A stretch of DNA of 14,963 nucleotides, taken from positions 1 to 14,963 of the forward strand of contig CAMDOL010000024.1 in assembly GCA_945903615.1 (NCBI GenBank), in the 5' to 3' direction. Positions 3,062 to 14,942 of this stretch are shown here, piece by piece; position 1 is the stretch's first letter; every line of letters begins with the position of its first letter. The DNA is from Rickettsia typhi (lineage in GTDB: Bacteria > Pseudomonadota > Alphaproteobacteria > Rickettsiales > UBA1997). A model generated the notes under the pieces. That model made no database searches. It was not told where the DNA came from and saw only the letters and a list, made by a program, of their open reading frames with translations. The position numbers were made by a program, and so were the translations under genes.

Positions 3062-3123
3062 ATCCCAGATCAAGTCTGGGATAAGTAATTTCTAAGAAAA
3101 AAGTTTTCTAAGCAATTACTTAT
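3062..3123. repeat. REP-like palindrome with adjoining inverted repeat between thrB and the peptidase gene
   Basis: ATCCCAGA (3062-3069) and TCTGGGAT (3075-3082) make a perfect 8-bp inverted repeat around TCAAG. It overlaps by 2 bp a second inverted repeat, ATAAGTAATT (3081-3090) and AATTACTTAT (3114-3123), with a 23-nt loop that reaches into the stop codon of the upstream gene. The motif GGATCCCAGATCAAGTCTGGGAT is reminiscent of short palindromic repeats that recur in intergenic regions of Rickettsiales and other alphaproteobacteria. There is no T-tract after the stem on either strand, so it is not a standard terminator. Confidence 0.55.
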
Positions 3124-3950
3124 TTTTTGTCTTCCAGCTCTTGGTGTTTTTGCCAAGATTGTTGCCAGACGGAGTTAGAATTGACATTTTTTGACCAAGA
3201 TTTTTGCTGGCTTGAATCAAATTTTTTGTAAAATGATTTTTCGTTATCGGCAAATTTTTTTTCGGTTCTAAAACTATTATTAGCAATCAAATTATTAGAA
3301 TAATCTGCAATTTCCTGATTAATTTTGCTGCGAATTTTGGGATTAAAAACTTCACAAATCCATTTGGAAGTATTAACAAAAAACTCCATAACTTGGGCGG
3401 TTGTAAAGCTGCCATTTGGAGCCACATCGCGCGAAGTGCTTAAAAGCTCAAAATATCTGGCGAATAATTCAGAAATAAATTGATAAGATGGGTAAGACTT
3501 AAGTGCATCAATCATCAACCTTTGCATTTCACCCGCCAAAACCAATGATTTGGGCTGACGATTTTTCATATCAAAACCAATTGACTTGCGGAAATCATCA
3601 TTCAAAACTAACCCGCTTTCCACCTCCAAACAATGTGCCATCTCATGCGCCAAAACATTCACCGCAAAATTACGAATAATAATTTTGTGATCCAAGCTGC
3701 GTGTAAAAGTTTTTAAAAATTTATTATAAACCTTGCGCTGATCACTCAAATAGCAGCCTTGATTAGTGTCCCAACCTTTAATAATTTTAACTTCAAAAGT
3801 TAAGCCACCTTGTTGTGCTTTGGTTAAAATTAAATCTAAACCATCTTTATAAATCTCAATTCCATAAAGACTAATGAACTGATCAGCAAATTTTTTACTC
3901 TCATTCACACCTTCAAATTTGAGAGCTTTATTTAAAATTTCTTCGATCAT
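3120..3950 (-). CDS. HExxH putative zinc metallopeptidase, family not recognised
   Basis: A 276-residue protein with the zinc-peptidase signature AHEMAHCLEVE: His102, Glu103 and His106. A candidate third zinc ligand of gluzincin type is Glu161 in SELFARYFELL, about 55 residues further on. No signal peptide or membrane segment is apparent, so a cytosolic location is likely. The last 60 residues are rich in Lys, Ser, Asn and Gln and look disordered. The N-terminal 90 residues have no motif I recognise. The gene starts 5 bp after the fur stop codon, so the two are almost certainly co-transcribed and may respond to metal status together. That would fit a zinc- or iron-related role, but the substrate is unknown. 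The metal-site reading is firm; the peptidase activity is inferred. Confidence 0.7.
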   Translation of the reverse strand: MIEEILNKALKFEGVNESKKFADQFISLYGIEIYKDGLDLILTKAQQGGLTFEVKIIKGWDTNQGCYLSDQRKVYNKFLKTFTRSLDHKIIIRNFAVNVLAHEMAHCLEVESGLVLNDDFRKSIGFDMKNRQPKSLVLAGEMQRLMIDALKSYPSYQFISELFARYFELLSTSRDVAPNGSFTTAQVMEFFVNTSKWICEVFNPKIRSKINQEIADYSNNLIANNSFRTEKKFADNEKSFYKKFDSSQQKSWSKNVNSNSVWQQSWQKHQELEDKK

Positions 3951-6604: not shown

Positions 6605-7825
6605 ATGAATAAATTTCAGATTTTTACGAGTCAAATACTGGTTTATGCCTTAAGAGTAAGCCATTTCATAGTGATTTTATTAAAGAGAATCTTCGGTAAA
6701 AAAACTATTCTTCTAGTCTCCAAACAACAAATTAAGAGCTATTCTATTGGTCCAATCGCCCAAATCACTTTCCTATTTATATTATTGTGGCTAGGCAGCA
6801 TCTTCACCAGATCCCTCAGATATAACTCAATGATTGAAAAAAAATCAGTTGAAATCAGCGACTTAAAGAAAGCAAATCAACAATTTGAAGATAAAGTCGA
6901 ATCTTTAAACACTAATTTACAGAAAATTAATCTCTATTTCAAATCTATCTCTGGTTACAACAATGGCCCAGAAAAATTAGAAGGCGCTGATCAAACTAGT
7001 ATCGATCAAAAAGTTCAGGATTTATTTGGCAACCTTAATCTAAATTCTCAAGACCAACAAATTGCTGCCAAGATTGCTGATTCAAGTTTAATTTTAGATA
7101 ACATTAAAGGCACAGCAATTCAAAGAATTATCAGTTTAGAACAAAAACTTTCTATAGCCGGAATTAGCTTGATAAATAACAAAGTGATTCTCAGACGCGG
7201 TTCCGATAATAACGAAAACCAAAATGTTGTATCTTTGAACGGCAAGGGCGAACTTTCCAAAAGACAGGGTGGTCCATTTAAAGAATTTAGAAAAAATATT
7301 GATTCTTTCTCTGGATCAAAAATTTTTAGTTTTGGCACAGATTCATCATCTGGAATTAAAAATGAAATTGAATATCTAGCTAATTTAGAAAAATTTATTC
7401 ACTTCGCACCTCTTGCTTCGCCAATGAAAAACTATTATGTTTCTAGTGTTTTTGGCAAAAGAGTTGATCCGATCAAAGGAATCTTTGCTAAACATAACGG
7501 AATGGATTTTGCTGGACAAAACGGCGCAAAAATTCTCAGCCCCTCCGCTGGAAAAGTTATTTTTGCTGGAAAGTTTGGATCATATGGAAATACCCTAATC
7601 ATTGATCATGGTTATGGATTTACAACTAGATATGGTCATTTATCAAGAATTAATGTTAGGGCTGGTGACAATGTGAAGAAAGCACAAATAATTGCTGCAC
7701 AAGGGAGTACCGGCAGAAGCACCGGGCAACATTTACATTACGAGGTCAGATATAATAATACCCCACTTAATCCAAAAAAATTTTTACAGGCTGGGCAAGA
7801 GATTTTTAATACTAACAATGGCTAG
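6605..7825 (+). CDS. Membrane-anchored M23 (LytM) peptidoglycan endopeptidase
   Basis: A 406-residue protein expected to cut peptide cross-links in peptidoglycan from the periplasmic side of the inner membrane. One membrane segment is seen at about residues 51-67 after a basic cytosolic region, followed by a coiled coil (about 75-115). A linker of low conservation leads to a C-terminal M23 domain (about 268-395). Zinc and catalytic residues are complete: His297 and Asp301 in KHNGMDFA, His345 in RYGHLS, and His376 and His378 in GQHLHYE. The domain should therefore be active, unlike degenerate LytM activators of the EnvC/NlpD type. The start is the ATG at 6605; an 8-residue extension from a TTG at 6581 would overlap the candidate promoter. 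It is 32 bp upstream of a bactofilin gene. This M23-bactofilin pairing is widely conserved (for example Helicobacter Csd1-CcmA and alphaproteobacterial LmdC-BacA) and couples local wall cutting to a cytoskeletal scaffold. Confidence 0.92.
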   Translation: MNKFQIFTSQILVYALRVSHFIVILLKRIFGKKTILLVSKQQIKSYSIGPIAQITFLFILLWLGSIFTRSLRYNSMIEKKSVEISDLKKANQQFEDKVESLNTNLQKINLYFKSISGYNNGPEKLEGADQTSIDQKVQDLFGNLNLNSQDQQIAAKIADSSLILDNIKGTAIQRIISLEQKLSIAGISLINNKVILRRGSDNNENQNVVSLNGKGELSKRQGGPFKEFRKNIDSFSGSKIFSFGTDSSSGIKNEIEYLANLEKFIHFAPLASPMKNYYVSSVFGKRVDPIKGIFAKHNGMDFAGQNGAKILSPSAGKVIFAGKFGSYGNTLIIDHGYGFTTRYGHLSRINVRAGDNVKKAQIIAAQGSTGRSTGQHLHYEVRYNNTPLNPKKFLQAGQEIFNTNNG

Positions 7826-7857
7826 CAAATTCACTTACTTTAGTTCCAAATAATCAT

Positions 7858-8283
7858 ATGTTCTCAACTTCCACTTTAAAATTATTCACCAACTCACTCA
7901 AAAGTGGCAGCAATTCTGACTCATTTGGTAAAACTATTGAACAAATGACAGTTGCGTTTAAATCAATGCCATCAATAATTGCTAGAGATTCTAAAATTGA
8001 GGGAGAAGTTTATAGTTCGGGCGTGATAGAAATCGAAGGACAAATCAAAGGTCGCATCAATAGCAACTCAATTATTATTAGAGAGGATGGTTTTGTTGAT
8101 GGGGATATTAATGCTGATTCAATCAATATTCGCGGCAATTTTAATGGCAATATTAAAGCACGGAATATCAATGTTTTTAGTAAAGCAAAAATCACTGGCA
8201 ATATTGAATATCAATCTCTTTCTGTTGAAGATGGAGCTTCTATTGATGGTCAATTCAAGCAATTATCTGACAAAAAATCTTAG
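7858..8283 (+). CDS. Bactofilin (polymer-forming cytoskeletal protein)
   Basis: Bactofilins self-assemble without nucleotide into membrane-associated filaments that position wall enzymes or stalk and curvature machinery. This 141-residue protein has the family layout: a disordered Ser/Thr-rich N-terminus (about 1-36), then a right-handed beta-helix core of short Gly-Ile/Val repeats (about 38-135), such as IEGEVYSSGVIEIEGQIKGRI, and a short polar tail. The opening MPSIIARDSKIEGEV at residue 37 is the typical entry to the DUF583 fold. The ATG at 7858 lacks a Shine-Dalgarno. It directly follows the M23 endopeptidase gene, its usual functional partner, and precedes the PilMN-like gene by about 116 bp. 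The family assignment is secure; the process it scaffolds here is not known. Confidence 0.93.
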   Translation: MFSTSTLKLFTNSLKSGSNSDSFGKTIEQMTVAFKSMPSIIARDSKIEGEVYSSGVIEIEGQIKGRINSNSIIIREDGFVDGDINADSINIRGNFNGNIKARNINVFSKAKITGNIEYQSLSVEDGASIDGQFKQLSDKKS

Positions 8284-8399
8284 AACCTATCTTGTAATTT
8301 GCAGATTGTAATTTACACTAAATTGTACCGCTCTTCAATAAGACTGGAAAGGCATTACTTTCATTGCTCCCTCATTTGCGAACCAAATAATATCGTATT

Positions 8400-9977
8400 A
8401 TGCTCGATAAAAGGAAATTTACTATCAGCATTGGTGAATATGGTGTGATAGTCGCACTACATAATGGCAGCAATGTCCAAAATAAAATTCTTGTTGCTGC
8501 TCTTAACGAAGAAAATAAAGTTCAATTACGAGATTTATTCACCAAAAATAAATCAGTATCAATTTATGTTTTAATTGATACTGCGGATCAGAATTATAAA
8601 AGAACAAGCTATCCTCCAGTCAGTGAATCAGATTTTCATAAAATTGTTAAGCGCGACATCAACAAAGAACTTAACGACAGCCAAAAGACTTTTAAAAGCT
8701 ACTATGGCTATAAAGATAAAATACAAAATAAGTGGGAATGTATTTTTATTTCAGTTCCCTACTCCTTAGATGTAGAAAATTGGATTGAATTTTTACTGGG
8801 ATTACCCAATAAATTTGTTGGTATCTATATGCTACCAATTGAAACTTGTCATTTAGCTAAAACAGTTTTTGATTTTATTAAAGCTGATCATTCCCTTCGC
8901 ACTAACGAAAATAGCATAATCTCTTTCATTGTTCAAAACAAAGTAAGCGGGGTCAGACAGGTTGTGTTTTTCAATAATGCCATCGTCTTTACTAGGGTGG
9001 TTAATTACGATTTTGATGATCGGAATTTTGCTCAAAAATTCGAACAAGATATATTTCGTGCTAATGAGTATTTGAAAATGATTTTTCCGAAACTCAAAGC
9101 TCAAGATGTGACGGTGATTAACATTTTATCGGATGAAATAATCGAAAAAATAAAACACTCCGCCAATCACGAATTAAACTTTATCAACTATTCACCATTC
9201 CAAATCGCCTCTAAGCTTGGAATGACAAATGTTATTGCCAAAAATAATAGTAATTTTTCTGATATTATTATTGCCAATTCCTTTGCCAATAATAACAAAA
9301 AGGCGATTAAATTTTTAAATCCTAGAATAACTTTCTTATCTCGGCTGGAATTTATAGTTAAATCAATGATTGTTTTTAACTGCGTCATCGCCGCTGGAAT
9401 ATTGCTAATGTTCACTAAAATTATCATTCAAGCCCATCAATATAGTGGATCGATGTCGAAATTAAAACACGAGATAATTCAGCTGGAGCAACAGCTTCAA
9501 AGCATTAGTAGTGCAGCGTTAGATTTAGATGAAAAAGGTGTGGCTGGTAAAAAATTAGATAAATCTTCTAATGATTTAGCTAATGAAATTATTGATTTTG
9601 GAAAAGTAGATGAAGCATTGTCAAAGTTTGATATAACTATTGCTAACGTTTTTACTCAACTCACCTTAATTAAAAAATATGGCGCCATTGTTAATTCTTT
9701 TGCTTATAAAATACCAGATTATAATCCCAAATTAGAATCATCAACAACGCAAGGCAAATTCTCTATAAGTGGCGATTTATCAGATCCAAGTGGTGATATT
9801 GAAATTCTATTTAGAAAATTTGATAATTTAGGTCTTGATACCAAAACTCAATTGCCTGGGTACAATATTAAATATTCCGAAATATCAAAGAATATTGATT
9901 TTGGTCAAAAATATTATTCTTTCCCCTTCGATTTAACCATAGAAAACAAGATGCAAGGAAATTCAAATGGCAAATAG
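8400..9977 (+). CDS. PilM-PilN fusion / GspL-like inner-membrane assembly protein (divergent)
   Basis: A 525-residue bitopic protein. The cytosolic part (about 1-320) has the size of an actin-like PilM or GspL domain and begins with a beta-rich FTISIGEYGVIVAL segment. Residues 57-87 (from VLIDTADQNYKR to KIVKRDI) resemble conserved blocks I associate with PilM-like alphaproteobacterial proteins. One membrane span lies at about 322-344. It is followed by a coiled coil (350-375) and a periplasmic domain whose end (GKFSISGDLSDPSGDIEILF, then FPFDLTIENK) resembles the ferredoxin-like fold of PilN. This order corresponds to PilM fused to PilN, or to a GspL with a longer periplasmic part. The stop codon overlaps the next gene by 11 bp. 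The assignment rests on architecture and weak sequence patterns, not a clear family match. A clear actin-type ATP site could not be confirmed by eye. Confidence 0.6.
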   Translation: MLDKRKFTISIGEYGVIVALHNGSNVQNKILVAALNEENKVQLRDLFTKNKSVSIYVLIDTADQNYKRTSYPPVSESDFHKIVKRDINKELNDSQKTFKSYYGYKDKIQNKWECIFISVPYSLDVENWIEFLLGLPNKFVGIYMLPIETCHLAKTVFDFIKADHSLRTNENSIISFIVQNKVSGVRQVVFFNNAIVFTRVVNYDFDDRNFAQKFEQDIFRANEYLKMIFPKLKAQDVTVINILSDEIIEKIKHSANHELNFINYSPFQIASKLGMTNVIAKNNSNFSDIIIANSFANNNKKAIKFLNPRITFLSRLEFIVKSMIVFNCVIAAGILLMFTKIIIQAHQYSGSMSKLKHEIIQLEQQLQSISSAALDLDEKGVAGKKLDKSSNDLANEIIDFGKVDEALSKFDITIANVFTQLTLIKKYGAIVNSFAYKIPDYNPKLESSTTQGKFSISGDLSDPSGDIEILFRKFDNLGLDTKTQLPGYNIKYSEISKNIDFGQKYYSFPFDLTIENKMQGNSNGK

Positions 9978-10716
9978 CATTCTTGATCAACTACAAGCTG
10001 CGGAGTCAGCTAAAAATAGCGATGCGTCAAAAATTAAAAATGAAGCATACGATAAGAAAGCATCTCACTTAAAACACAACATTATTCTTTGCCTATGTTT
10101 TTCCGGCGCTTTTCTGGTAGTAATTATAGCGATCATTTTTCATAGCCAGCGTATGGTAACGATGAACGAGAAAGATGTGAGTCTTTTAAATGCTCAAATT
10201 GGAGATTTAAAAAATAAGTCAGCTAACGTTGAGGCAAGAGTTAGCGATGCTAAAAAATACAAACAAATTTGGATAAAGGCTGATGAAAAAAAGAAAAATT
10301 TCAACGAGATTAAACTTTCTGATATAAATATTGGCTTTAAGGCTTTATCCGATCAATTCAACCTTTCCAAATCATCAATTAATATTTCAGTTCCAGAAAT
10401 TCTGAAAGATGGTGTTTATAGCCGCCCAACTCTAGATGTTCATCTGATAAATTGTGTGGTAAATTTTGACGCATTAACTGATAAAATTGCAGTCGATTTT
10501 ATTAATACTTTTGTAGAGAGCCTTCCTGGCTATGTTATTATTAATGATTTTTCAATCAAAAAAAATAAAAAGGGGGGTTATAGTGATGCCGATCTAATAA
10601 ATATTAGTAGCGGTAATTTTGGCGGCTTAATATCAGCAAAAGTTAGTTTTTCTTGGTATTTCTTGAAACATAAAGTTGCAACCAACCAACCAACAAGTAA
10701 TGAATCCAAGAAGTAA
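9967..10716 (+). CDS. PilO/GspM-like bitopic assembly protein (divergent)
   Basis: A 249-residue protein with a short polar cytosolic tail (1-37), one membrane span (38-59, rich in Ile/Leu/Val), a coiled coil (about 66-115) and a periplasmic alpha/beta domain (about 116-235). Near the end it has PTLDVHLINCVVNFDAL and VESLPGYVIINDFSI, a pattern like the ferredoxin-type repeat of PilO. It would pair with the periplasmic part of the preceding PilMN-like protein. The ATG at 9967 lies 11 bp inside the upstream gene and has AGGA about 7 nt before it. This is the only clear Shine-Dalgarno in the window, which suggests translational coupling. The C-terminus overlaps the next gene by 17 bp. The function is inferred from size, topology and gene order; sequence similarity is too low to be sure. 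Confidence 0.55.
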   Translation: MANSILDQLQAAESAKNSDASKIKNEAYDKKASHLKHNIILCLCFSGAFLVVIIAIIFHSQRMVTMNEKDVSLLNAQIGDLKNKSANVEARVSDAKKYKQIWIKADEKKKNFNEIKLSDINIGFKALSDQFNLSKSSINISVPEILKDGVYSRPTLDVHLINCVVNFDALTDKIAVDFINTFVESLPGYVIINDFSIKKNKKGGYSDADLINISSGNFGGLISAKVSFSWYFLKHKVATNQPTSNESKK

Positions 10717-11398
10717 AATTATACAAATTATATTTTTTATAATCTGCGCTTTCGCCAGCAATGCTCTTGCTCAAGACCAACTCCCAAATAAAGATCTCAA
10801 TATCAATGGTATTGCAGATGTCGTCAATAAGGCGGTTGTTGGTGATCAACCACAGAATCTATCTTCTAACAACGATAAAAAGCCAGCCACTAATAATTTA
10901 TCTAAAACCGCCAACCCAGCAAGTAGTAAAAAAGATTATTTGTCATTGATGTATAGCGATGAAGAAATAAGGAAAATACAAGAAGCGCTTAACGCTTTTA
11001 AAGATGGAAAGCCTCTTATTGATAAAAATCAGAACACTCCAATTGAGGATGAAACCGCAGAATTACCTCCCGAAGATAATGCTAAATCTTACATTTATTT
11101 AGGATCAATTTTATATAGCTCTCCAAACAAATGGTCAGTTTGGATAAACGATCACAAAATTTCTTCATCAAATAATAAACCGAGCAATGAGCTTTATATA
11201 AAATCCATCAATGAAGATGAGGTGAATATTGTTTGGATAATGAGCACTAGTAAGTGGAAAATTTTAACCAATACAAAATCTGATGATGGGGTGCCAATTA
11301 ATGTAAACAATCAGGTTGAATTTGATTTTACTTTGAGCTTTAATCAAACCTATATGCTCAATGGTAATAAAACCGTTGAGGGTAAGATGCTCCACTAA
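10700..11398 (+). CDS. Secreted PilP/GspC homology-region-like protein (divergent)
   Basis: A 232-residue exported protein. An N-terminal signal peptide (residues 1-24, basic start then a hydrophobic run) has a probable cleavage site after ALA, before Gln25. Cys16 lies in the hydrophobic core and does not form a lipobox, so it is not a typical PilP lipoprotein. A disordered Asn/Ser/Lys-rich linker (25-128) leads to a small beta domain (about 130-190), starting YIYLGSILYSSPNKWSVWIN and continuing to LYIKSINEDEVNIVW. This resembles the beta-sandwich HR domain of PilP and GspC, which docks to a secretin. The ATG at 10700 overlaps the upstream gene by 17 bp; an earlier TTG (10676) would give a poorer signal peptide. 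Gene order after PilMN- and PilO-like proteins supports the idea. A secretin partner is not in the window. Confidence 0.55.
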   Translation: MNPRSKIIQIIFFIICAFASNALAQDQLPNKDLNINGIADVVNKAVVGDQPQNLSSNNDKKPATNNLSKTANPASSKKDYLSLMYSDEEIRKIQEALNAFKDGKPLIDKNQNTPIEDETAELPPEDNAKSYIYLGSILYSSPNKWSVWINDHKISSSNNKPSNELYIKSINEDEVNIVWIMSTSKWKILTNTKSDDGVPINVNNQVEFDFTLSFNQTYMLNGNKTVEGKMLH

Positions 11399-11802: not shown

Positions 11803-11854
11803 ATGTCAGTTGGAAATGCCAGTTGGAAATGCCAGTTGGAAATGTCAGTTGGAA
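11803..11854 (+). repeat. Four tandem 13-bp repeats, each with an ATG, before the glutamine-synthetase-like gene
   Basis: The unit ATGYCAGTTGGAA occurs four times without gaps (starts at 11803, 11816, 11829 and 11842), differing only at one C/T position in the order T, C, C, T. A fifth ATG at 11855 follows directly. Because 13 is not a multiple of 3, the ATGs fall in all three frames; those at 11816 and 11855 are in frame with the downstream gene. Such a unit is prone to slipped-strand change in copy number, which would alter upstream starts and possibly translation. Confidence 0.9.
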
Positions 11855-12790
11855 ATGATTTTGGAGAGAATTTATCATCACAAAAAATTTCTTCTAAAAT
11901 CAGTTTTAGAAAATTTTCAATCCCAAAATTTACAACCAAAAATTGGTGTTGAATTAGAATTTTATATTCAACACCATAGCTTGCCAGCTAATGCAGAATT
12001 AACAAAACAATTCATCGATCATCTCAAATCAGAAATTTCTAAACATAATATAAATCTTCTAGACATAGAACCAGAGCAAGGTATTGGGCAAATTGAAATT
12101 AAAACTCTACCTTATCTAGATATTATTAAGCTATGTGATGACATTTCTCAAATCAAAAAAATTACTCAAAGTTTAAGCCAAGATTTTCAAATTAACTTTT
12201 CATCCCAGCCTTATGAAAATGACTGCGGAAGCGCTCTGCAAATTAATTTCAGCTTGATGAATGAAAATAATTTTCTCTTCGCTAAAACACACGGGCAAGA
12301 AAGCAAATATCTTCTCCATTCCATTGCCGCAGCACTGAAATTTACCCACAATATGATGATTATTTTTGCACCAAAACCAGAAGATTATTTGCGGTTTGGC
12401 TTGGAATTAAATCGCAACTTGCACAAACAAAAAAAATATACTGCACCGGTCAATATCAGTTGGGGATACAATAACCGCAGCGCTTTAATTCGCGTTCCTG
12501 CTACTCAAACAATTAGCGAGCGGAGATTAGAGTTTCGTCTAGGATCAAGCTCTGCCGATATTTATTTAACTAGCACATTTTTTTTGTTAGCAATTTTACA
12601 AGGGATTAAAAAAGAGGATAAATTGCCGTCAGAGATTTATGGGAACAGCTTCGATGATCAATATGATTTAAAGCCTTTACCAAGCTATGAGGAGGCTAAA
12701 AGTCATTTTTTGAACAATGATTTAACCAACGAAATTCTTTTTATATTGGACAGCAACAAACTTGATTATAACTCCAGAGATTGTAGTTAA
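11855..12790 (+). CDS. Glutamine-synthetase-fold protein, minimal and lacking the HxH metal motif
   Basis: A 311-residue protein matching only the catalytic barrel of the glutamine synthetase superfamily. Visible landmarks are GVELEFYI (Glu33 and Glu35), EQGIGQIEIK (Glu74 and Glu81), APVNISWGYNNRSALIRVP (197-215, Arg208) and RRLEFRLGSSSADIYL (Glu226, Arg228). The N-terminal beta-grasp domain of about 100 residues is absent, although it completes the active site in classical oligomers. The GxHxHxSL motif reads GSALQINFSL, so both His residues are replaced (Gln129 and Asn131). It may be a gamma-glutamyl ligase with another substrate, a regulatory relative, or a decaying enzyme. The start was set at the ATG just after the 13-bp repeats; 11816 would add 13 residues. 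The last 69 bp are antisense to the permease gene end. The superfamily is fairly sure; the activity is not known. Confidence 0.7.
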   Translation: MILERIYHHKKFLLKSVLENFQSQNLQPKIGVELEFYIQHHSLPANAELTKQFIDHLKSEISKHNINLLDIEPEQGIGQIEIKTLPYLDIIKLCDDISQIKKITQSLSQDFQINFSSQPYENDCGSALQINFSLMNENNFLFAKTHGQESKYLLHSIAAALKFTHNMMIIFAPKPEDYLRFGLELNRNLHKQKKYTAPVNISWGYNNRSALIRVPATQTISERRLEFRLGSSSADIYLTSTFFLLAILQGIKKEDKLPSEIYGNSFDDQYDLKPLPSYEEAKSHFLNNDLTNEILFILDSNKLDYNSRDCS

Positions 12791-13844: not shown

Positions 13845-14942
13845 CTATTTGGTTAATGATAAGAAATATCCACCTTCAGTTTTTCTTTGTAAAAACAAAT
13901 TATATTTGGCAAAAAAATTAATTATATCACCATTATTATTGTTGTAAGTAACATTTATTTTTACCAAATCTTTGGAAATTGAACTCACCTTCAGACCAGA
14001 AGCGATATTAGAATTTTCTAATTTATTTTTTACCGTTATCCAATCACCAAGATCAGAAATCAAAACATCAATATTGATAGAAGCTGTGCCATTAGAAGCT
14101 ACAGAGCTAGTATTATTTTTATCACCAACTAGGTAATCGAGGGTTTTTACCGCAACTTTGTTGATCAAATCTGGCATTGACAATTGATTCACATTTACAA
14201 AATCAAGGCGAATTTGATTGGTCTGAGATTTGCGAATGATTTGTAAATTAATATTCACCTTGTTTTCAATCGCATCAAATTCAAAATAAGCAAAAACTAA
14301 AGTATCGACTTTATATTTATTAAAAGCGGGCTCAAAGCTAGAAAAACTGTTGTTAATGATGGTTCCAAAATTGAATATGCTAATATCTTCAACATCACCT
14401 TTGAGAAATTTAATTGATGGGGTTTTACCATTCTGAGTAATATTTTCCCAAGCTAATTTCCAGTCGTTATTTTCTTCCCAGATTATTGATTGATTTTTTA
14501 CTACTTTAATTGGAACAACCAAATAGGAATTGGGCTTAGCAACTTCCGAAGAGCCAATCTTGTTGCCCAAATAATGCTTAACAAAACTTTCAGAAAAAGT
14601 GAGGTTTAAAGTGGCGGAATAATTATTTCCAGAGATTTTCTCATCAATAATTTGCTGTGAAGCCACCATATCCGCAATCAAATCATCTTGCAAACTGGCC
14701 GCAACACTTTCATCTATTCCCAAACGATTTAATAAAATAACAAAAGCATTTCTCTGCCCAGCGGCAACAGCATTGATTCTGGCTTGACTAGGTGTTTTTC
14801 CAGAAGCATTGACCGCCACATCACTCACAGCATATTGGCTTTGCACCTCAGCCAATGCAATTTTGGAATTGAACAGCAAGACTAGGATTAGACAAAACCA
14901 TCGAGGTTTCATCACTTGGTAAATCATATTGGAAGTTGACAT
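13845..14942 (-). CDS. DUF2066-like secreted protein
   Basis: A 365-residue protein with an N-terminal signal peptide (hydrophobic run at about 15-25, probable cleavage after IALA at residue 31), so periplasmic. The next block, YAVSDVAVNASGKTPSQARINAVAAGQRNAFVILLNRLG, fits the start of DUF2066 proteins, which lie beside the PerM permease gene in many alphaproteobacteria. The remainder alternates beta-strand-like segments and polar stretches, ending in GGYFLSLTK; no catalytic motif is recognised. In-frame ATGs at 14942, 14927 and 14912 are all possible and none has a Shine-Dalgarno. The longest is given; 14912 would give the tightest signal peptide. The role is unknown; link to the downstream permease is by gene order. 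Confidence 0.7.
   Translation of the reverse strand: MSTSNMIYQVMKPRWFCLILVLLFNSKIALAEVQSQYAVSDVAVNASGKTPSQARINAVAAGQRNAFVILLNRLGIDESVAASLQDDLIADMVASQQIIDEKISGNNYSATLNLTFSESFVKHYLGNKIGSSEVAKPNSYLVVPIKVVKNQSIIWEENNDWKLAWENITQNGKTPSIKFLKGDVEDISIFNFGTIINNSFSSFEPAFNKYKVDTLVFAYFEFDAIENKVNINLQIIRKSQTNQIRLDFVNVNQLSMPDLINKVAVKTLDYLVGDKNNTSSVASNGTASINIDVLISDLGDWITVKNKLENSNIASGLKVSSISKDLVKINVTYNNNNGDIINFFAKYNLFLQRKTEGGYFLSLTK

What the first reader, a model, noticed from the sequence alone, without database searches (positions are those of the whole stretch)
6605..11398. Possible undescribed envelope machine: M23 endopeptidase, bactofilin and a PilMN-PilO-PilP-like trio
Seen: five same-strand genes encode a membrane-anchored, catalytically complete M23 enzyme, a bactofilin, and three proteins. 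The three have the topology and order of PilM+PilN (fused), PilO and a secreted HR-domain protein. The last three genes overlap. Known: PilMNOP or GspLMC form the inner-membrane alignment complex of type IV pili and type II secretion. M23-bactofilin pairs direct local wall remodelling. Inferred: the set may form one apparatus that crosses the wall, with the M23-bactofilin pair opening or placing it. No ATPase, pilin, platform protein or secretin is in the window, and the sequences are far from textbook families.
Basis: partly seen in the sequence, partly recalled or inferred. Interest (0 to 1): 0.75.

Follow-up and report, generated by a model that had tools for sequence, protein, structure and literature searches.

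The report
Hidden pilus alignment complex in Rickettsiales
Three unannotated genes in this Rickettsiales-like bacterium encode the inner-membrane scaffold of a type IV pilus, and the same scaffold genes are kept in relatives in which no pilin gene could be found, so the scaffold may have a second job there.

Summary
The five genes are real and placed as described. The last three (MN 8400-9977, O 9967-10716, P 10700-11398) are a diverged, unannotated type IV pilus alignment complex: fused PilM-PilN, PilO, PilP. The MN model matches solved PilM and GspL; the P model matches PilP/GspC HR domains. In another family of the same order the trio lies in pilB-pilC-MN-O-P clusters. Nearer relatives carry the other pilus genes scattered: secretin 31/32 genomes, T2SSE ATPase 32/32, platform protein 31/32, prepilins 32/32. 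So this is not a new class of machine.

The M23-bactofilin pair is a separate conserved module, beside the trio only in the window and its closest genome, where the whole neighbourhood is shared.

Unexpectedly, MN occurs in 168 of 262 genomes sampled from the order. In 31 of 33 hand-picked near-closed small genomes it persists with no detectable platform protein or prepilin. There the secretin-binding HR domain of P lies beside MN-O in 17 of 17 genomes with a secretin and 0 of 14 without. The genes show purifying selection, and a gene tree implies separate pilus losses. This suggests a pilus-independent role for PilMN-PilO, unproven; PilB/PilT were not searched there.

The parts
8400..9977 (+). 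MN: fused PilM (actin-like, about residues 1-305) + membrane helix (about 325) + PilN-like periplasmic domain
9967..10716 (+). O: PilO-like bitopic membrane protein
   Evidence: order and topology; profile match to the O gene of pilB-pilC-MN-O-P clusters, hhalign probability 99.6, E 1.7e-23; fold itself not modelled
10700..11398 (+). P: secreted PilP/GspC-like protein with C-terminal HR domain (about residues 125-232)
   Evidence: AlphaFold2 model, HR part pLDDT mostly over 90; Foldseek ranks 1-2 are PilP; VIA ranks 1-10 are all chains of type II secretion or type IV pilus entries; hhalign to cluster P genes probability 99.8, E 1.7e-27
6605..7825 (+). membrane-anchored M23 metallopeptidase; separate module with bactofilin
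   Evidence: Pfam PF01551; motifs; M23 beside bactofilin in 29 of 30 loci
7858..8283 (+). bactofilin; separate module with M23
   Evidence: Pfam PF04519; found in 29 of 32 relatives' genomes

Best explanation
MN-O-P is the inner-membrane alignment complex of a dispersed, MSHA-like type IV pilus. The PilM-like half of MN sits in the cytoplasm against the assembly ATPase and platform protein; its PilN-like half pairs with O in the periplasm; P binds N/O through its N-terminal part and the outer-membrane secretin through its HR domain, so that the pilus is built through a channel spanning both membranes. The ATPase in the closest genome carries an MshEN domain, so assembly is probably gated by cyclic di-GMP, and a PilT retracts the fibre. 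Shown here: predicted folds of MN and of the P domain, homology to contiguous pilB-pilC-MN-O-P clusters, presence of the other parts in relatives' genomes. Inferred: physical contacts, c-di-GMP control, and that the window's own genome has the other parts. M23-bactofilin is an independent wall-remodelling module.
For: Folds: MN against PilM/GspL; P against PilP/GspC. Synteny: distant MN beside ATPase and platform genes in L032; in the 12 regions fetched from that genome's family pilC-MN-O are contiguous in 12, pilB is seen upstream in 11 and P downstream in 11 (ATPase and platform named by NCBIfam models in L217, below their cut-offs; elsewhere by eye); MN found in 16 of 16 genomes of the family, which one search lists inside the order of G001. 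Homology of O and P to those clusters. Other parts in relatives: secretin 31 of 32, T2SSE 32 of 32 with a full-length PilB-class match in 27, T2SSF 31 of 32, N-methylation prepilins 32 of 32. Closest genome G001: PilD (Pfam over cut-off), PilT (NCBIfam over cut-off), PilB with MshEN (PilB model 509.6 bits, cut-off 675.65), PilC/GspF-type platform (267.5, cut-off 424), MshL-like secretin (185, cut-off 250). No rival alignment complex: curated PilO 0 of 32; PilM_2 matches are mostly in ORFs of about 410 and 350 aa, one of which I checked and is FtsA.
Confidence: 0.9

Rival explanations
1. A type II secretion system rather than a pilus: MN is GspL, O is GspM, P is GspC, and the pilins are pseudopilins.
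Against: A PilT-family ATPase over its cut-off in the closest genome (441.7 against 319.1 bits); its secretin scores higher with MshL than with GspD (185 against 122 bits) and its ATPase higher with PilB than with GspE (509.6 against 491.2), all below cut-off; 4-22 prepilin matches per genome; P has only a signal-like stretch.
Confidence: 0.08
2. One reading: M23, bactofilin and MN-O-P act together, the pair opening or placing the complex in the wall.
For: Five-gene order shared by window and L001, whose MN proteins are 53% identical; bactofilin is in 29 of 32 MN-bearing relatives, so the parts do coexist.
Against: Window and L001 share the whole surrounding block, so the adjacency carries no special weight; elsewhere the two modules are at different places.
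Confidence: 0.12
3. In the small genomes that keep MN-O but lack platform and prepilin genes, the trio is a decaying leftover of the pilus with no function.
For: One genome (G156) has a shortened MN ORF (218 aa) and a shortened O ORF (130 aa); L235 has MN without a neighbouring O; the genomes are small.
Against: Median dN/dS 0.16 for MN, O and P in group W, 0.25 and 0.24 for MN and O in E, 0.24 and 0.21 in R, with single pairs up to 0.36 (W), 0.76 (E) and 0.33 (R); MN ORFs of 476-534 aa in all near-closed genomes but G156; retained in three groups that the gene tree keeps apart.
Confidence: 0.25

Closest known systems
Type IVa pilus alignment complex PilM-PilN-PilO-PilP
   Same: fold of the PilM half, HR domain of P, gene order, one TM in MN and O, neighbours pilC and pilB in another family of the order
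   Different: PilM and PilN fused; P without lipobox; no curated Pfam or NCBIfam model reaches cut-off; in the window's nearer relatives scattered from the rest of the pilus set
MSHA pilus MshI-MshJ-MshK with MshL secretin and MshE ATPase (subunit roles recalled)
   Same: secretin scores best with TIGR02519 MshL; PilB-class ATPase has an MshEN domain; fused PilM-PilN as recalled for MshI
   Different: secretin below the MshL cut-off; MshI/J/K sequences not compared here; no single msh-like locus seen around the trio in L001-L031
Type II secretion GspL-GspM-GspC
   Same: fused actin-like plus periplasmic domain as in GspL; HR domain
   Different: PilT-family ATPase present; secretin closer to MshL than to GspD; P not membrane anchored beyond a signal-like stretch
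Rickettsiales type IV pili reported in comparative genomics (PMC10847448, passages; PMC9352585, abstract, opening text and passages)
   Same: same order; pilus components noted in early-branching families; PMC10847448 describes losses in crown families
   Different: 'PilM' does not occur in the main text of PMC10847448; I did not search subunit names in PMC9352585; the passages read do not describe an alignment complex kept in pilus-less genomes; supplements were not available to me
Pfam RP854 (PF17460) and RP853 (PF17542), uncharacterised families, by their names R. prowazekii loci
   Same: RP854 covers the O gene beside MN in L234
   Different: no function or pilus link in the family names; the gene matching RP853 shows no HR domain

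Membership tests
Type IV pilus alignment complex | PilM actin-like cytoplasmic domain | tested here: met
Type IV pilus alignment complex | PilN and PilO: bitopic with ferredoxin-like periplasmic domain (recalled) | tested here: inconclusive
   one membrane stretch each; secondary structure of MN 414-516 is helix-strand-strand-helix-strand-strand, compatible by recall; O not modelled; structure rows span residues 1-303
Type IV pilus alignment complex | PilP HR domain | tested here: met
Type IV pilus alignment complex | PilP is a lipoprotein (recalled) | tested here: not met
   window P begins with a signal-like stretch ending in an AxA-type site and has no lipobox, by reading the sequence; a secondary feature, absent also in GspC (recalled)
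Type IV pilus alignment complex | genes adjacent to pilB/pilC or secretin in some members | tested here: met
   pilC-MN-O contiguous in 12 of 12 regions of the G032 family, pilB seen in 11; not so in L001-L031
Type IV pilus | secretin, assembly ATPase, platform protein, prepilins in the same genome | tested here: met
   in relatives selected by MN: 31, 32, 31 and 32 of 32 genomes; T2SSE also counts VirB11-class hits, full-length PilB-class in 27 of 32
Type IV pilus | the same set in the window's own genome | not testable with these tools
   no whole genome held
Type IV pilus alignment complex | recognition by curated PilM_2 or PilO models | tested here: not met
   window proteins reach no cut-off; PilO 0 of 32 genomes; PilM_2 hits mostly in ORFs of FtsA and MreB size, one checked as FtsA; a few weak ones below cut-off in ORFs of 456-597 aa (G009, G010, G025, G026) not checked
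MSHA-type pilus | MshL secretin | tested here: inconclusive
   TIGR02519 is the best family but 185 bits against cut-off 250
MSHA-type pilus | MshE-type ATPase with MshEN domain | tested here: met
   PF05157 56 bits against 23.1 in G001 PilB; NF053729 42.7 against 38
Type II secretion system | no PilT retraction ATPase (recalled) | tested here: not met
   pilT_fam 441.7 bits against cut-off 319.1 in G001
M23-bactofilin-PilMNOP single apparatus | conserved five-gene order across relatives | tested here: not met
   only window and L001; 28 of the 31 other MN loci have acpS upstream, L025 and L030 end there, L032 has pilC; same contig in 1 of 19 genomes

The most novel reading that the evidence does not exclude
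In several intracellular lineages of the order, PilMN and PilO (with P and a secretin in one group) have outlived the pilus and were kept as a pilus-free envelope complex with its own function: a trans-envelope channel or scaffold where secretin and HR domain remain, and an inner-membrane-only complex where both are gone.
Probability: 0.5. Interest if true: 0.78.

Novelty: new variant of a known kind. Interest (0 to 1): 0.62.

Why it matters
Type IV pili have been reported in early Rickettsiales, but the alignment-complex genes found here bear no pilus name: the names printed for MN homologues are 'hypothetical' or the like, apart from one 'SlyX', and two O homologues are called 'FtsL'. Naming them completes the pilus parts list for these genomes. 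The persistence of MN and O in small genomes without detectable platform or prepilin genes suggests a second role for part of the pilus machinery. If group W is Wolbachia, as I think from gene content, it may also give partners to the type II secretion-like protein that a review found unexplained in many Wolbachia strains (PMC7397232, passages). The matching absence of secretin and HR domain predicts which half of P binds what.

Tried and rejected
Rejected: a new class of machine, because the other pilus parts exist elsewhere in the relatives and the trio is contiguous with pilC, mostly also pilB, in the G032 family. Rejected as main reading: M23-bactofilin as part of the apparatus. Considered: T2SS (see rivals). 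Tried without gain: PDB sequence searches with MN profiles and with the cluster P and O profiles gave no T4P or T2SS chain (one search listed Titin at E 0.0026, taken as chance; the window-side P and O profiles were not searched); promoter/terminator scan; phage and plasmid DNA searches meant to identify the small genomes gave no match. Literature: RP853/RP854/RP855 listed four papers, one a Rickettsia typhi GroEL paper (PMC8191997) that holds 'RP853' once, not opened; Rickettsi* with PilM, PilN and PilO listed one Vibrio harveyi paper, not opened; of the other listings I opened only the three papers named in the report.

Limits of the counts: the 32 genomes were reached by MN homology, so they are selected for MN. 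The order sampled is unnamed; that it is Rickettsiales is my inference from the record titles. The 33 near-closed genomes were hand-picked from the MN rows printed: match on contig 1, which turned out 1.1-1.8 Mb long; rows not printed were not considered, and G036, G084 and G184 (also contig 1) were left out. The 20 MN-negative genomes are those printed of 94. The 33 fall into few clades, so 17 of 17 against 0 of 14 is not 31 independent observations. With G063 (secretin, HR) and G216 (secretin, no P found beside O) the table is 18 of 19 against 0 of 14. The HR search covered only the fetched regions of 7-16 kb, not whole genomes. G222 has the HR domain but was not in the secretin search and is left out. 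Absence of platform, prepilin or secretin means no match to one Pfam model, which rang in 13, 8 and 6 of 14 control genomes; very diverged copies would be missed. In group W the secretin match stops near position 130 of 169, as it does in pilus-bearing G216. dN/dS used pairs with dS 0.05-1.5 and over 100 codons: W, 15 genomes (14 of the 17 above plus G222; G156 left out as shortened, G232 and G243 as near-copies of G226), 101, 101 and 96 of 105 pairs for MN, O and P; E, 10 genomes, 28 and 27 of 45 pairs for MN and O; R, 4 genomes, 5 of 6 pairs for MN and 2 for O; P was not computed for E. The gene tree warns of long branches meeting, and its root is for drawing only.
Full report
What is in the window. 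Pfam recognises only the M23 peptidase and the bactofilin; the other three have no family over cut-off in Pfam or NCBIfam. The M23 domain keeps both metal-site motifs; MN and O each have one membrane stretch and P a signal-like N-terminus. MN/O and O/P overlap by 11 and 17 nt.

Relatives. A protein search found 69 MN homologues and 14 O homologues. A scan of one genome per species found 32 loci, mostly Rickettsiales or unplaced alphaproteobacterial metagenome assemblies; several record titles (Rickettsia typhi, Rhizobium sp. Q54) look like mislabelled metagenome bins (my judgement). In 28 of the 31 loci other than L001 an acpS gene stands divergent next to MN, with gpsA and guaA beyond it in 25 and 21 loci (the names are by eye); L025 and L030 end on that side, and L032 has pilC there. 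O was found beside MN in 29 of 32 loci and P in 26 (which counts 30 and 27 with the window). L018, L031 and L032 end inside MN and L022 inside O; L012 and L020 showed no P. Only L001 shares the window's arrangement, and there the whole block is shared, from the ribosomal-protein genes to the AI-2E transporter.

M23-bactofilin. A bactofilin was found in 29 of the 32 genomes. M23 lies next to bactofilin in 29 of the 30 fetched bactofilin loci, the exception being a second bactofilin of G032. Among 19 genomes for which I had both coordinates, MN and bactofilin share a contig in one, G001; fragmented assemblies weaken this, but the flanks of the trio show the same. So the pair is a conserved module of its own, and its place beside the trio is a local arrangement.

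The synteny decides it. In L032 a distant MN follows an ATPase and a platform gene. In the family of that genome 16 of 16 genomes have MN; one search lists these genomes within the order of G001. In 12 fetched regions pilC-MN-O are contiguous in all 12, pilB is seen upstream in 11 (in L224 my ORF picker chose an opposite-strand ORF) and P downstream in 11 (not seen in L223, near its contig end); in four a TPR protein and two PilT-like genes stand beside the cluster. Family models match the ATPase and platform in L217 (below cut-off) and PilT in L219 (over cut-off); elsewhere these are by eye. The O and P genes of these clusters match the window's families by profile comparison (probability 99.6 and 99.8).

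The rest of the pilus. The 32 genomes carry a secretin in 31, a T2SSE ATPase in 32 (full-length PilB-class in 27), a T2SSF protein in 31 and N-methylation-motif prepilins in 32, 4 to 22 matches each. In G001, the nearest genome, they are scattered: secretin next to a prepilin peptidase, a platform protein, PilB with an MshEN domain, and a TPR protein next to PilT. Curated PilO is found in 0 of 32. PilM_2 matches 32 of 32, but mostly in ORFs of FtsA and MreB size; the one checked is FtsA, and a few weak ones in longer ORFs were not checked. The trio therefore fills the vacant place of the alignment complex. The secretin is nearest MshL, below its cut-off, so the pilus is MSHA-like rather than a proven MSHA member.

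An unexpected extension. With a broader profile, MN was found in 168 of 262 genomes sampled from the order of G001. I fetched trio regions from small near-closed genomes. In 34 such regions (33 near-closed genomes plus G222) O lies beside MN in 33, the exception being L235. By gene content I sort the pilus-less ones into W (Wolbachia-like), E (Ehrlichia/Anaplasma-like) and R (Rickettsia-like); the first two names are recall, the third is supported by Pfam family RP854 covering the O gene of L234. Of the 33 near-closed genomes, hand-picked from the printed rows, 19 have a secretin, 2 a platform protein and the same 2 prepilins. So 31 keep MN with no detectable platform or prepilin: 17 with a secretin (W), 14 without (10 E, 4 R). 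Of 20 MN-negative genomes, 5 have a secretin, 3 a platform protein and 4 prepilins: MN absence and pilus absence are not the same thing, or the profile misses some.

P and the secretin. A profile of the HR part alone finds it in the fetched region of 18 of 19 secretin-bearing genomes (exception G216, with no P seen beside O) and of 0 of 14 without secretin. Without the two pilus-bearing genomes G063 and G216 the table is 17 of 17 against 0 of 14. In group E the ORF in the place of P is 178-195 aa: it keeps a cysteine-rich N-terminal part and an IKSIFF-like motif and ends before the HR domain. In group R the gene after O is of another family (RP853 in L234, by eye also in L311 and L312), and L235 has MN alone. 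This fits the division of PilP that I recall: N-terminal part to PilN/PilO, HR domain to secretin.

Selection and history. Median dN/dS is 0.16 for MN, O and P in W, 0.25 and 0.24 for MN and O in E, and 0.24 and 0.21 in R, the last from 5 and 2 pairs. In an MN tree, W, E and R are each one clade, and G216, which keeps platform and prepilin genes, is sister to W (support 98/86) inside the W+E clade (100/100), so platform and pilins were lost separately in W, E and R if the gene tree follows the species and nothing was regained (long-branch warnings apply). Parallel retention of MN-O under constraint argues for a role beyond the pilus. What that role is I cannot show; a scaffold or, where the secretin remains, a trans-envelope channel is the most economical guess. 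PilB/PilT were not searched in these genomes.

Literature. I read passages of PMC10847448, which reports type 4 pili in basal Rickettsiales and multiple losses in crown families, and the abstract, opening text and passages of PMC9352585, which reports type 4 pili in Mitibacteraceae and Athabascaceae. A review of Wolbachia systems (PMC7397232, passages) notes that many strains encode a protein annotated as, or homologous to, a T2SS protein, possibly related to type 4 pilus proteins, and leaves it out of its figure. Searches for Rickettsiales with type IV pili and PilQ, for Rickettsi* with PilM/PilN/PilO, and for RP853-RP855 (listings only) showed nothing that, from title and abstract, names this trio; subscription papers and supplements were not covered.

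Noticed in passing
32 relatives' genomes, e.g. L174 and L192: Prepilin genes are many (4-22 N_methyl matches per genome) and, among the printed rows, mostly in large ORFs of about 240-440 aa, some in tandem; one has a LamG-like match below cut-off.
   Followed up: partly
L153, L155 (genome G001): PilB carries an MshEN domain over cut-off, the secretin gene stands beside a prepilin peptidase, and a TPR protein stands beside PilT, as by eye also in clusters L218, L219, L222 and L228.
   Followed up: partly
P genes in L229, L230, L232, L233, L237, L239: P proteins of the W and E groups share a cysteine-rich N-terminal part; the two tested have no family over cut-off.
   Followed up: no
window 11810-12790; L306, L307, L308, L310: A glutamine-synthetase-like gene (Pfam in the window; by eye elsewhere) lies near the trio both in the window and in several E-group genomes, perhaps old synteny.
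   Followed up: no
L303 (genome G156): MN and O ORFs are shortened (218 and 130 aa) in one W-group genome that keeps P with its HR domain and a secretin.
   Followed up: partly
window 13845-14942 and 3120-3950: Two further window proteins without any Pfam family over cut-off.
   Followed up: no
L217:12141-12860 and like positions: An ABC-type ATP-binding protein follows P in 11 of 12 pilB-pilC-MN-O-P regions (Pfam ABC_tran in L217; others by eye).
   Followed up: partly
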